64,000 nt of DNA from Xanthomonas euvesicatoria pv. euvesicatoria. Its GTDB lineage: Bacteria > Pseudomonadota > Gammaproteobacteria > Xanthomonadales > Xanthomonadaceae. A program made the translations under genes and the position numbers. A model generated the notes under the pieces. That model was not told the origin of the DNA and did not search any database. It saw nothing but the letters and a program-made list of their open reading frames with translations. Shown here piece by piece: positions 51,594 through 54,649 of this stretch. Positions within the stretch are counted from its first letter, which is position 1. Each line of letters opens with the position of its first letter. The stretch is taken from NCBI RefSeq assembly GCF_020880415.1, contig NZ_JAJIUJ010000105.1, positions 62,001 through 126,000 on the forward strand, written 5' to 3'.

Positions 51594-52136
51594 TCACCGC
51601 GCAGACTGCTCTCCACGCGCCATGCTGGAAAACACCCCGTCGCGGCGTACCCAGGCGTGAAACAACGCCGCGCTCAGATGCCCCAGCACGGTGGCAAATA
51701 ACAGATACGCCAGCCAGCCATGCGCGCTGCGCAGCCAGGCATACAGTGCAGGATCGTGCGGTGCGATCGCCGGCAGGTTCGCGCCTGGCCACAGCACGAT
51801 CGGGTAGGCGCCGGCCGACAGCATCGCCCAGCCGATCAACGGCATGCCCAGCATCAATGCATACAGCAGCCAATGCGAGGCAATCGCGGCAGCCCTTTGC
51901 CATGCCGGCAGATCGGCCGGCAGCGGCGGCGGGCGATGGCGCAAGCGGTTGATCAGGCGCAGCACCGCCAGGATCAGAATCGCGATGCCCAGCGGGCGAT
52001 GTAGATCGATCAACCACGGCCGCTGCGTCACCGAGGCCACCATGCCCACGCCGACGAACAGCATGGTCAGGATCATCGCGGCCATCAGCCAGTGCAGCAC
52101 GCGCGCTGGCAGATTGAAGTGGGTACGGCGGCTCAT
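51594..52136 (-). CDS. Cytochrome b561-type membrane haem protein
   Basis: A 180-residue protein with four membrane helices and paired histidines for two haems: LHWLMAAMIL (about residue 14), DLHRPLGIAIL (about 45), ASHWLLYALMLGMPL (about 87) and the last helix with two histidines, LLFATVLGHLSAALFHAW (about 144-161). It is translationally coupled to the upstream peroxidase gene by a 4-base ATGA overlap, so it probably passes quinol electrons to that exported haem enzyme. The gene pair is found in other bacteria, often with an ECF sigma factor. Confidence 0.92.
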   Translation of the reverse strand: MSRRTHFNLPARVLHWLMAAMILTMLFVGVGMVASVTQRPWLIDLHRPLGIAILILAVLRLINRLRHRPPPLPADLPAWQRAAAIASHWLLYALMLGMPLIGWAMLSAGAYPIVLWPGANLPAIAPHDPALYAWLRSAHGWLAYLLFATVLGHLSAALFHAWVRRDGVFSSMARGEQSAR

Positions 52137-53224
52137 TGGCGTGCTCCCTGGCCGGTGGCGGCGCTGCCCGTGCCGTTGGCGATCTCGCGCTCGCGGCGGT
52201 TGAACGATTGCGAATACACCGACGAGCGCGCTGCCAGAATCGGGTCATTCGATGCGGCAAGGCCCTTGGGCAAAATCAACGGGTCGTAATTGAGATCGCG
52301 ACACGGGCCGGTGGCCTGCGGCTGCGCACGCTCGATCGAGAGCGTGCCGGCCACGATCTGCTTGCGGCGTTCCGGCCACGGTTGCGACGGGTCGTCCACC
52401 GCATCGCCGGGCTCGGCGATGGTCAGCACCATGTCCCAACGCAGCGGCCCGTGCGCCAGCCGCGCGTCCAGGTCGGTGGCGAGAAAATCGCCATCGGCCT
52501 GCTTGCGTTGCGCGGCGCTCAGTTCCTTGAATGGCGTATGCGGGCGCATCGACCAGCGGATGTAGCGTTCGCGTCCGTCGGCGGCAATCGCGCGGAACGC
52601 ATTGACGCCGTTGTATTGCGTATTGGCCCAGCTGTCCGACCACGGCGCAGTCTTGGCCCACTGCTGGAACTTGGCCGCTTCCGGATACTGCTTGCCGAAC
52701 GCCGCCAGTTTTTCGGGGTCCGGCTTGCCGGTGGCCGGGTCTGGCTTGGAGGCCACGTTGAGCGCCTGAAAGCCGGCCGGCGTGGCGACCACGAAGAACG
52801 GGAAGCTGTTCATCGCCGTGCGCCATTCCTGCCCATCGTCGCTGCGCAACAGCAGCGCCATGCTGCGTACGCGCGCCTGCCCGTCCGGCCCGTGCGGGTC
52901 GCCGCCGCCGATCGACATGCGCCCCAGCACCGGCGTGCTGGGCTGGCTGAAGATGCGTGCCGACGACAGCCAGGTGGCCTTGCCGCTGGACTGGAATTGC
53001 CCGCTCACGCACACCCCTTTGGTATGCGCGCGGCGAAAGCCCGGATGCGGCGGCCCGCTGGATTCGATGGTGTCGGTCATGCGCGCGGCAGTGAGCCGGT
53101 CGCCACCGATCCAGCCGGCCGTCCAGGCAAACGCAAGCGCAACGCCGCCGGCAATGGCGGCAATCCCCAACAATGGCAGCACGGGGCGGCGCGCGCGCGG
53201 GGGCGAGGGAGGTGGCAACGTCAT
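52133..53224 (-). CDS. Exported catalase-family peroxidase (SrpA-like)
   Basis: A 363-residue protein starting at 53224 with GGAG ahead of it; the longer frame to 53341 would start upstream of the promoter. An N-terminal membrane anchor (about residues 14-34) leads to a catalase-fold domain with the distal histidine in RRAHTKGVCVSGQF (about 62-75) and a core that is shorter than true catalases. SrpA/KatE-related mini-catalases act as peroxidases rather than dismutating H2O2. The partner cytochrome b561 downstream could supply electrons. A minus-strand ECF-type promoter lies at 53267-53294. Confidence 0.9.
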   Translation of the reverse strand: MTLPPPSPPRARRPVLPLLGIAAIAGGVALAFAWTAGWIGGDRLTAARMTDTIESSGPPHPGFRRAHTKGVCVSGQFQSSGKATWLSSARIFSQPSTPVLGRMSIGGGDPHGPDGQARVRSMALLLRSDDGQEWRTAMNSFPFFVVATPAGFQALNVASKPDPATGKPDPEKLAAFGKQYPEAAKFQQWAKTAPWSDSWANTQYNGVNAFRAIAADGRERYIRWSMRPHTPFKELSAAQRKQADGDFLATDLDARLAHGPLRWDMVLTIAEPGDAVDDPSQPWPERRKQIVAGTLSIERAQPQATGPCRDLNYDPLILPKGLAASNDPILAARSSVYSQSFNRREREIANGTGSAATGQGARQ

Positions 53225-53266
53225 GGCTGGCTCCGGTGGTCGATACTGTGAGTGGTTGATACGAGT

Positions 53267-53294
53267 GAGACGACATGCGAGCCGCGTTATTCCC
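53267..53294 (-). promoter_or_regulatory. ECF-type promoter of the peroxidase/cytochrome b561 operon
   Basis: Read on the minus strand, GGGAATAA (53294-53287), 14 bases, then CGTCTC (53272-53267). The predicted start near 53260 gives a leader of about 36 bases before the peroxidase ATG. The same two blocks with identical spacing lie in front of the divergent sigma gene. Confidence 0.7.
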
Positions 53295-53328
53295 TCGTCC
53301 ACCAACGACGGTGGCACGCACCGATCGC

Positions 53329-53356
53329 GGGAATAATCCACGCTCCAGTGCGTCTA
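53329..53356 (+). promoter_or_regulatory. ECF-type promoter of the sigma/anti-sigma operon
   Basis: GGGAATAA (53329-53336), 14 bases, CGTCTA (53351-53356). This is the twin of the minus-strand element, so it is a probable autoregulatory promoter. It ends eight bases before the ATG at 53364, so translation there would be almost leaderless. Confidence 0.7.
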
Positions 53357-53363
53357 CCGTGTG

Positions 53364-53900
53364 ATGCCACCACCACGCCCGCCAATGGATGCTCTGGACG
53401 ATGACCAACTGCGCGCCGTGCTGCCGGCGCTGCGCCGCTTTGCGCGCTCGCTGAGCGGCGAGCCCGCCAGCGCCGACGATCTGGTGCAAGCCACACTGGA
53501 GCGCGCGCTGCGGCGGTGGCACACCCGGCATACCGCCGAAGCCCTGCAGCCCTGGCTGTTCGCCATCCTGTACCGGCAGTTTCTGGATGGGCAGCGGCGT
53601 GCCGCGCGCTGGCAGCGGGTCGTGGGCCTGTTCGCGCCGCAGCAGCCCAGCCAATCCGCGTCCGCTGAGCAGGTGCACGACGGCCGTGCCATGCTGGCCA
53701 GCCTTGCATCATTGCCGGCCGAACAACGCGCGTTGTTGCTCTTGGTCAGCGTGGACGGTTTCAGTTATCGCGAAGTGGCCGATACCCTCGGCATCCCGAT
53801 CGGCACCGTGATGTCGCGCCTGTCGCGTGCGCGCGAACGCCTGCGTGCCGTGAACGAAGGCCAGGTGAATCACGCACCTGCATTGAGGATCCTGAAATGA
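53364..53900 (+). CDS. ECF-family RNA polymerase sigma factor
   Basis: About 178 residues if it starts at ATG 53364 (GTG 53361 and ATG 53385 are alternatives; the promoter at 53329-53356 leaves little or no leader for 53364). The sigma-2 region is LRRFARSLSGEPASADDLVQATLE (in part, about residues 21-44) with the -10-recognising helix RRWHTRHTAEALQPWLFAI. Sigma-4 spans about 114-165 with SVDGFSYREVADTLGIPIGTVMSRLSRARERLR (in part) as the -35-recognising helix-turn-helix. It ends ATGA-overlapping its anti-sigma factor. Confidence 0.93.
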   Translation: MPPPRPPMDALDDDQLRAVLPALRRFARSLSGEPASADDLVQATLERALRRWHTRHTAEALQPWLFAILYRQFLDGQRRAARWQRVVGLFAPQQPSQSASAEQVHDGRAMLASLASLPAEQRALLLLVSVDGFSYREVADTLGIPIGTVMSRLSRARERLRAVNEGQVNHAPALRILK

Positions 53901-54649
53901 CCACCATACCGCCCGACGAACACGCGCTGCACGCCTACGTCGATGGCCGCCTGACGCCGGAGCAACATGCAGCAGTGGCAGCCTGGCTGCAGGCACATCC
54001 CGCTCAGGCCGCGCGCGTGGCGGCCTGGAAGCGCGATGCCGAAGCGCTGCGTGCCGCACACGCCGGCCTGATGGCGGAGACTGGCGCCGTAGCCTTCACG
54101 CCTGCGGCGATTCGCCGTGGCTTGCAACAGCGCCGTCGTGCCGCGTTTGCCGTGGCCGCCAGTTGCGTGCTGGCACTTGGCCTGGGTACCGGGCTGGGCT
54201 GGCAGCTGCATGCGAGCCGGATCGCCAGCCAACGCGTGCCGATGGCCGATGCAGTGGCCGCCTACCGCCTGTTCGCCGATGCCGACGCGCATCGGGGCGT
54301 TGGGTTGGACGTGCAGCGCCGCGCCGAGTTGGAACCGTGGTTGCGCACGCATTTCGGCAACGCAGGCGCGGTGCCGGATCTGCGTGCGCAGGGGTATACG
54401 TTGCGCGGTGGGCAATTGCTGTCCACACCGGAAGGCGCGGCCGCGATGCTGGTCTACAGCGATGCCGACGGCGCACGCATTGGCCTGTATCTGCGTCCAC
54501 GCAGCGGCCCGATGCCGACCGGCGAGCGCCGCGATGGCCGGCTGTTGGCGCAGTACTGGGCCGAAGGCGACACCGCATTCGCGCTGGTCGGCCCCGCGAC
54601 GCAGACACGCATGCGCACGATCGCGCCGTTGTTGCGTCGCCAGGGCTGA
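53897..54649 (+). CDS. Membrane anti-sigma factor for the adjacent ECF sigma
   Basis: A 250-residue protein coupled to the sigma gene by a 4-base overlap. The cytosolic N-terminus (about 1-75) shows the anti-sigma helix pattern DEHALHAYVDGRLTPEQHAA, but the Zn-binding HxxxCxxC motif is absent. One membrane helix lies at about 82-102 (FAVAASCVLALGLGTGLGW). The periplasmic domain of about 145 residues has no known match. It presumably holds the sigma factor until a stress signal is sensed outside. No protease genes for its release are in this window apart from the Do-like protease at 60007. Confidence 0.85.
   Translation: MTTIPPDEHALHAYVDGRLTPEQHAAVAAWLQAHPAQAARVAAWKRDAEALRAAHAGLMAETGAVAFTPAAIRRGLQQRRRAAFAVAASCVLALGLGTGLGWQLHASRIASQRVPMADAVAAYRLFADADAHRGVGLDVQRRAELEPWLRTHFGNAGAVPDLRAQGYTLRGGQLLSTPEGAAAMLVYSDADGARIGLYLRPRSGPMPTGERRDGRLLAQYWAEGDTAFALVGPATQTRMRTIAPLLRRQG

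What the first reader, a model, noticed from the sequence alone, without database searches (positions are those of the whole stretch)
53267..53356. Twin divergent ECF promoters with identical blocks and spacing
The 63 bases between the peroxidase and sigma genes contain GGGAATAA-N14-CGTCTA on the plus strand (53329-53356) and GGGAATAA-N14-CGTCTC on the minus strand (53294-53267). The same two blocks with exactly the same 14-base gap, pointing at two divergent operons, is very unlikely by chance. It predicts that the adjacent ECF sigma factor drives both its own operon and the peroxidase/cytochrome operon. It also supplies a searchable consensus for the regulon.
Basis: partly seen in the sequence, partly recalled or inferred. 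Interest (0 to 1): 0.75.

Follow-up and report, generated by a model that had tools for sequence, protein, structure and literature searches.

The report
Twin sigma-factor promoters for a peroxidase
A small regulator gene in this Xanthomonas genome sits back to back with genes for a peroxide-removing enzyme, and matching start signals, kept in many related bacteria, indicate that the regulator switches on both itself and the enzyme.

Summary
GGGAATAA-N12-16-CGTCT matches only these two places in the 5.31 Mb genome, back to back between a catalase-family peroxidase/cytochrome b561 operon and an ECF sigma/anti-sigma operon; the intergenic gap is 136-160 bases, not 63. Of 70 family loci read, 55 have the peroxidase beside the sigma gene; 54 of 55 carry both sites with at most one mismatch each in GGAATA-N14-17-CGTC, against 0 of 1,100 shuffles. 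In the genus 35 of 35 genomes keep the peroxidase but 14 the sigma gene; the peroxidase-facing site survives (<=1 mismatch) in 14 of 14 with it and 4 of 21 without it. Pantoea has the four genes as one operon behind one such site. The motif matches mapped ECF26 promoters. A divergent catalase/sigma pair of Burkholderia was already reported as co-induced by peroxide. So the sigma factor very probably drives both operons: a well-supported new member of a known kind, with no transcript measured here. Unexpected: the anti-sigma factor's predicted periplasmic domain resembles the RseB/MucB small domain.

The parts
53329..53356 (+). Promoter toward the sigma operon: -35 GGGAATAA (53329-53336), 14 bases, -10 CGTCTA (53351-53356); start predicted near 53363-53364
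   Evidence: Exact match; site kept at <=1 mismatch in 55 of 55 family loci with the peroxidase and 14 of 14 sigma-bearing genus genomes; start by analogy with mapped S. meliloti starts
53267..53294 (-). Promoter toward the peroxidase operon: -35 GGGAATAA (53294-53287), 14 bases, -10 CGTCTC (53272-53267); start predicted near 53259-53260
   Evidence: Exact match; kept at <=1 mismatch in 54 of 55 family loci with the peroxidase, in 14 of 14 sigma-bearing and 4 of 21 sigma-less genus genomes
53385..53900 (+). ECF sigma factor (the longest ORF starts at GTG 53361; ATG 53385 is the likelier start)
   Evidence: Pfam Sigma70_r2 and Sigma70_r4_2; ATG 53385 kept in the sigma-bearing relatives as read by eye, ATG 53364 lost in G312
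53897..54649 (+). Membrane anti-sigma factor with one membrane stretch (residues 82-102) and a periplasmic domain resembling the RseB small domain
   Evidence: Weak NCBIfam anti-sigma match; hydropathy; models and structure comparison; ATGA overlap with the sigma gene
52133..53224 (-). Catalase-family peroxidase (srpA type) with an N-terminal membrane anchor
   Evidence: Pfam Catalase E 9.6e-25; nearest PDB sequence 3e4w_A E 1.3e-40; anchor at residues 13-39
51594..52136 (-). Cytochrome b561
   Evidence: Pfam PF01292 E 8.3e-32; ATGA overlap with the peroxidase gene

Best explanation
The two sites are a pair of divergent promoters read by the ECF sigma factor encoded at 53385-53900. One drives the sigma/anti-sigma operon (positive autoregulation, with shut-off by the anti-sigma factor made alongside); the other drives the catalase-family peroxidase and cytochrome b561. 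Shown by sequence: both sites, their conservation, and their decay where the sigma gene is missing. Inferred: that this sigma factor is the one that reads them; that the anti-sigma factor holds it at the membrane until an envelope signal, perhaps a later product of peroxide stress, releases it; and that the peroxidase works outside the inner membrane with electrons passed from quinol by the cytochrome. The regulon appears to be these two transcripts.
For: Only two exact sites in the genome. Both sites at <=1 mismatch in 54 of 55 family loci with the peroxidase, 0 of 1,100 shuffles, and in none of 15 homologous loci without it. Twelve of 58 class/phylum loci have the divergent peroxidase and cytochrome, and all 12 have facing sites (one of 24 sites reads CGTT; one locus repeats L029). 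In the genus the peroxidase-facing site follows the sigma gene (14 of 14 against 4 of 21; over independent pairs 4.6 of 5 the same way and none the other, median p 0.0625). Pantoea: one operon of the same four genes, one site in front, in the 3 loci read. The motif equals mapped ECF26 promoters of S. meliloti, whose RpoE4 activates two such promoters in reporter assays. No sigma-70-like promoter was found in 53100-53500. B. cenocepacia divergent catalase BCAL3477 and sigma BCAL3478 rise together under peroxide (qPCR at three times 1.7, 6.5, 23.1 and not significant, 5.5, 16.6; passages); I did not check at sequence level that they are orthologues.
Against: No transcript start or binding was measured. 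Another ECF sigma factor of the genome with like specificity could read the sites; cross-activation occurs among S. meliloti ECF26 factors. All sigma-less genus genomes keep the peroxidase, so it can be expressed in another way. Part of the sigma loss may be exchange of one sigma-less allele, and p 0.0625 (range 0.0625-0.25) does not reach 0.05. In B. cenocepacia the catalase rises late, and the authors hold that it is triggered indirectly and does not clear the added peroxide; hypochlorite had no significant effect.
Confidence: 0.89

Rival explanations
1. The facing TTATTCCC...GGGAATAA blocks are an inverted-repeat operator for a dimeric repressor or activator, not two -35 elements.
For: The blocks do form an inverted repeat in the window.
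Against: The distance between the blocks ranges from 3 to 418 bases over 54 loci, while the distance to CGTC stays at 15 (94 of 108 sites) or 16 (14 of 108). Pantoea has one block only.
Confidence: 0.03
2. The sites are ECF promoters but another ECF sigma factor of the cell reads one or both; the neighbouring gene is regulated by it and does not regulate the peroxidase itself.
For: S. meliloti ECF26 factors cross-activate each other's promoters, and two S. meliloti ECF26 genes (rpoE3, rpoE6) have promoters of another type.
Against: The peroxidase-facing site decays when just the neighbouring sigma gene is lost, and the two sites share the same consensus over 54 loci.
Confidence: 0.07
3. The resemblance of the two sites is chance or a recent local duplication of one promoter.
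For: The 8-base and 5-base blocks are identical in the window.
Against: Spacers and surroundings are unrelated, and the pair is kept over a family and beyond.
Confidence: 0.01

Closest known systems
Sinorhizobium meliloti RpoE1/RpoE4 (ECF26) with the sorT sulfite oxidase operon
   Same: Same promoter: GGGAATAA-N14-GTGTCT before the rpoE1 operon, GGGAATTT-N14-CGTCT before sorT; autoregulated sigma gene beside a small redox operon with a site of its own; few targets (PMC6180224, passages and section 7; PMC6527743, passages)
   Different: The target is a sulfite oxidase with a cytochrome c-like protein and pseudoazurin; the signal is sulfite; whether the two operons are divergent was not checked
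Sinorhizobium meliloti RpoE6 (ECF26) and the divergent serine protease gene SMa0142
   Same: Sigma gene divergent from its target, ECF26-type site before the target; 43% identity to the window sigma
   Different: RpoE6 stands in another branch of the sigma tree; its own gene has a promoter of another type, and it had 40 targets on overexpression
Burkholderia cenocepacia BCAL3477 (catalase) / BCAL3478 (sigma)
   Same: Divergent catalase and sigma genes co-induced by peroxide (PMC2830190, passages)
   Different: No promoter or regulator was identified there; orthology with the window pair was not tested here
srpA of Xanthomonas citri (XAC3990)
   Same: Catalase-type gene of the genus, one of four; transcribed at all growth stages (PMC2875408, passages); taken to be this gene by name and description
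   Different: None of the passages on srpA that I saw names a regulator
RseB/MucB, periplasmic regulators of sigma E
   Different: Here the domain is on the anti-sigma chain itself; 12-17% identity in those rows; no MucB/RseB match in Pfam and none to PDB sequences at E<=1

Membership tests
ECF sigma factor | Short sigma-70 protein with regions 2 and 4 | tested here: met
   171-179 aa; Sigma70_r2 and Sigma70_r4_2 above the curated cut-offs
ECF26 | Promoter -35 GGAATA, -10 with GT/CGTC | tested here: met
   Both sites fit the published consensus and spacing
ECF26 | Downstream anti-sigma partner: N-terminal anti-sigma domain, membrane stretch, periplasmic C-terminal domain (as in PMC6180224) | tested here: met
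ECF26 | Sequence grouping with reference ECF26 proteins | tested here: inconclusive
   Nearer to RpoE6 (43%, 99.8 bits) than to RpoE5 of ECF15 (39%, 85.9 bits) or RpoE9 (32%, 46.6 bits), but RpoE6 falls outside the branch of the peroxidase-linked sigmas in a quick tree; the published group models were not available
Autoregulated divergent ECF promoter pair | Both transcripts start after the sites and need the sigma factor | not testable with these tools
   Only sequence conservation was tested
Catalase-related (srpA-type) peroxidase | Short catalase domain with the catalytic His and the haem-ligand Tyr (roles recalled) | tested here: met
   Pfam Catalase; H67 and Y337 kept in >=95% of 22 rows and aligned with His and Tyr of 3e4w; activity not tested
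RseB/MucB-type periplasmic domain | Fold of the small C-terminal domain of RseB | tested here: inconclusive
   Six first rows in both models are RseB/MucB, but both models rest on the same eight species, and 1vr8 follows at 7.7 and 8.1; no sequence match

The most novel reading that the evidence does not exclude
The peroxidase-linked ECF clade is a self-contained envelope alarm whose anti-sigma factor carries its own RseB-like guard domain on the same chain, so that one protein both holds the sigma factor and senses the signal that exposes it to regulated proteolysis. RseA plus RseB would then be the split form of an arrangement that also exists fused, here dedicated to a membrane-linked peroxidase.
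Probability: 0.3. Interest if true: 0.65.

Novelty: new member of a known kind. Interest (0 to 1): 0.5.

Why it matters
It gives an exact, testable promoter and a two-operon regulon to a widespread sigma/anti-sigma pair, and a likely regulator to srpA, long listed among the catalases of X. citri. It would also explain why a divergent catalase and sigma gene of Burkholderia were seen to rise together under peroxide in 2010, a pattern its authors left open. Repeated absence of the sigma gene within one genus, with erosion of the promoter it reads, is a natural experiment on how small sigma regulons come apart. The RseB-like fold would link this kind of anti-sigma factor to the best-known envelope stress pathway.

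Tried and rejected
Rejected: an inverted-repeat operator (the distance between the blocks varies); chance; a larger regulon at this stringency. The relaxed GGAATA-N15/16-CGTCY finds four further places in the genome; one lies inside an ORF that reads like a glutathione-S-transferase-type protein (my reading; L098), the other three were seen only through a crude ORF list and are not resolved. In the genus 6 of 14 sigma-bearing genomes have one off-locus match each to GGAATAR-N14/15-CGTCY; the matches that recur between genomes also occur in sigma-less ones.

Literature. Ten searches, of which most results were seen as listings only. Two searches for ECF sigma with this peroxidase type and cytochrome b561 held no paper, and one on 'catalase-related peroxidase' held two papers, not opened. 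The report nearest to this finding is PMC2830190 (passages). A P. syringae genome paper names a catalase-like protein and cytochrome b561 in one variable region (PMC4235733, passages); PMC6372562 lists an unrelated KatE and a cytochrome b561 (passages). PSPTO_1043 of P. syringae has another promoter type, TGATCC/CGTA (PMC5507510, passages). The ECF review PMC8103513 has no mention of ECF26; PMC3817407 has no mention of ECF26, catalase or GGAAT. PMC10880074 and PMC3511301 were seen as passages. The 2021 ECF reclassification paper is not held, so I cannot say how that scheme files this clade. The anti-sigma profile matches no PDB sequence at E<=1.

Rows left out: of the 81 places (41-44% identical) were not fetched. 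L018 counts as lacking the peroxidase-facing site because its peroxidase lies 0.9 kb off, beyond the 700 bases scanned. L079-L081, L085 and L086 repeat or nearly repeat unnamed loci, and L197 repeats L029. Searches examined draws of 297, 369 and 398 genomes; only 58 further loci, those of the best matches, were looked at.

Full report
What is there. The plus strand carries GGGAATAA at 53329-53336, 14 bases, then CGTCTA at 53351-53356; the minus strand carries GGGAATAA at 53294-53287, 14 bases, then CGTCTC at 53272-53267. The -35 blocks lie 34 bases apart and the promoters point away from each other. To the left, on the minus strand, are a catalase-family peroxidase (52133-53224) and a cytochrome b561 (51594-52136), joined by an ATGA overlap; to the right an ECF sigma factor (53385 or 53361 to 53900) and an anti-sigma factor (53897-54649), also joined by ATGA. 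The window lies in a Xanthomonas genome: the same-genus genome G219 has a contig of the same length (159,466) as the named X. dyei record L079, and the nearest named loci are Xanthomonas. The species was not identified.

Chance. In the whole genome (5,314,922 bases, 121 contigs) GGGAATAA-N12-16-CGTCT and GGAATAA-N13-16-CGTCT match only these two places, with no match for the reversed patterns. The window's base composition gives about 0.06 expected exact matches per genome at one spacing.

Conservation in the family. A search of 297 family genomes with the sigma protein found 76 genomes with a match and 81 places. I read 70 of the 81 loci. In 55 the peroxidase lies divergently beside the sigma gene. 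Scanning up to 700 bases upstream for GGAATA-N14-17-CGTC, 52 of 55 have both sites without a mismatch and 54 of 55 with at most one each; of 1,100 dinucleotide shuffles none had both at <=1 mismatch. The miss (L018) has its peroxidase 0.9 kb away, beyond the scan. Over the 54 loci GGAAT and CGT are invariant and the sixth and tenth core bases nearly so; the spacer is 15 in 94 of 108 sites and 16 in 14; the third base after CGTC is A in 76% and 89% of the two sets. The distance between the two -35 blocks runs from 3 to 418 bases, which speaks against one operator. Of the 15 loci without a peroxidase in the stretch read, none has both sites at <=1 mismatch. Of 23 named loci from another collection, 13 have the peroxidase, and all 13 have both sites at <=1 mismatch; 5 of these repeat or nearly repeat unnamed loci.

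Beyond the family. Draws of 369 genomes of the class and 398 of the phylum gave 58 further loci that I examined; 12 have the divergent peroxidase and cytochrome, and all 12 have facing sites (one of the 24 sites reads CGTT; one locus repeats L029). Two more close relatives have sigma, anti-sigma and facing sites but another neighbour: a protein that reads like the SnoaL/NTF2 type (L196, where one site reads CGTA) and one that reads like DUF305 (L202); both names are my reading, not a search. On Pantoea plasmids the same four genes form one co-directional operon, and each of the three loci read has one GGGAATAA-N14-CGTCTTA a short way upstream of the first gene. A Cupriavidus replicon has the sigma (56% identical) with one such site in front and no peroxidase found in the 3.5 kb on either side.

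A natural knock-out. In the genus 35 of 35 genomes keep the peroxidase (in G308 it is split over two frames), but 14 of 35 keep the sigma gene at E<=1e-40. Where sigma is kept, the peroxidase-facing site has at most one mismatch in 14 of 14 and the sigma-facing site in 14 of 14; where it is not, in 4 of 21 and 10 of 21 (400 bases scanned). Three of the four exceptions still hold pieces of the sigma gene. On a tree of the peroxidase-cytochrome DNA, presence of sigma changes at least 8 times, at least 5 on well-supported branches; over 5 independent pairs the site follows the gene in 4.6 on average and never goes the other way (median p 0.0625, range 0.0625-0.25). Against a simple tale of separate losses, 8 of the 21 share one alternative upstream sequence although they lie in different branches, so alleles may have been exchanged. 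Broken sigma copies were described only.

What reads the sites. Promoters of S. meliloti ECF26 sigma factors, mapped by 5'-RACE and RNA-Seq, include GGGAATAA-N14-GTGTCT (rpoE1 operon) and GGGAATTT-N14-CGTCT (sorT); in the two that I measured (sorT, SMa0142) the start is the 10th or 9th base after CGTN (PMC6180224, passages and section 7). RpoE4 activated the sorT and rpoE4 promoters 260- and 16-fold in reporter assays, and the shared consensus is -35 GGAAT, -10 CGTC (PMC6527743, passages). The window sigma is 43% identical to S. meliloti RpoE6 (ECF26), 39% to RpoE5 (ECF15) and 32% to RpoE9, the three being located through their published promoters. In a quick tree of 68 sigma proteins the peroxidase-linked ones form one group of 36 (33 with the peroxidase, 3 without; SH-aLRT 99), while RpoE6 falls elsewhere. 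So it works like ECF26; formal membership is open. No sigma-70-like promoter was found in 53100-53500.

Transcripts in print. In B. cenocepacia biofilms under peroxide the putative catalase BCAL3477 and its divergent neighbour, the putative sigma factor BCAL3478, rise together (qPCR at three times: 1.7, 6.5, 23.1 and not significant, 5.5, 16.6); hypochlorite gave no significant change for either. The authors call the likeness remarkable, leave the role of the sigma factor open, and hold that the late rise means an indirect trigger and no part in clearing the added peroxide (PMC2830190, passages). I did not test that this pair is orthologous to the window's. If it is, it supports the joint control and argues that peroxide itself is not the direct signal.

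Start of the sigma gene. By analogy the plus transcript should begin near 53363-53364, so the GTG at 53361 would lie upstream of it. The ATG at 53385 is kept in the sigma-bearing genomes as read by eye, while the ATG at 53364 is lost in G312; 53385 is the likelier start (inference).

What the products do. The peroxidase is a short catalase-type protein nearest in PDB to 3e4w, with one N-terminal membrane stretch (13-39); H67, Y337 and a cysteine pair, C72 and C308, are kept in >=95% of 22 rows. A kept cysteine pair and a single anchor fit a periplasmic enzyme, and the cytochrome b561, with four membrane stretches, could feed it electrons from quinol (inference). In X. citri srpA is one of four catalase genes and is transcribed at all growth stages (PMC2875408, passages); I take it to be this gene by name and description.

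Verdict. Observation confirmed apart from the length of the gap; interpretation supported, with a regulon that appears to be two transcripts. Confidence 0.89 that this sigma factor drives both operons. New member of a known kind; interest 0.5.

Noticed in passing
35 same-genus genomes, between the peroxidase and the M17 aminopeptidase gene: The sigma gene is missing or in pieces in 21 of 35; 8 of these 21 share one alternative upstream sequence with a kept block, from different branches of the tree. What drives the peroxidase there is unknown.
   Followed up: partly
window 53897-54649: The anti-sigma factor's predicted periplasmic domain resembles the small domain of RseB/MucB.
   Followed up: partly
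window 52133-53224: Two cysteines of the peroxidase, C72 and C308, are kept in >=95% of 22 rows; no cysteine stands opposite them in the aligned lines of 3e4w. Possibly a disulfide.
   Followed up: no
L196 (1037-621) and L202 (DUF305-like gene beyond about 2100): Close sigma relatives with facing sites but other divergent genes: a SnoaL/NTF2-like and a DUF305-like protein (my reading). The promoter pair may be reused with other cargo.
   Followed up: no
L157, L158, L161 (Pantoea plasmids): The same four genes as one co-directional operon behind a single site.
   Followed up: yes
L081 (G092:C53): In X. axonopodis DSM 3585 only residues 142-250 of the anti-sigma factor are matched, so its N-terminal part appears lost, and the peroxidase-facing site has one mismatch.
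   Followed up: no
G308:C1:1067623-1068680: The peroxidase gene is split over two reading frames. Described only.
   Followed up: no
L085: A metagenome bin titled Rhizobium sp. carries an Arenimonas-like version of this locus, so the contig may be misbinned.
   Followed up: no
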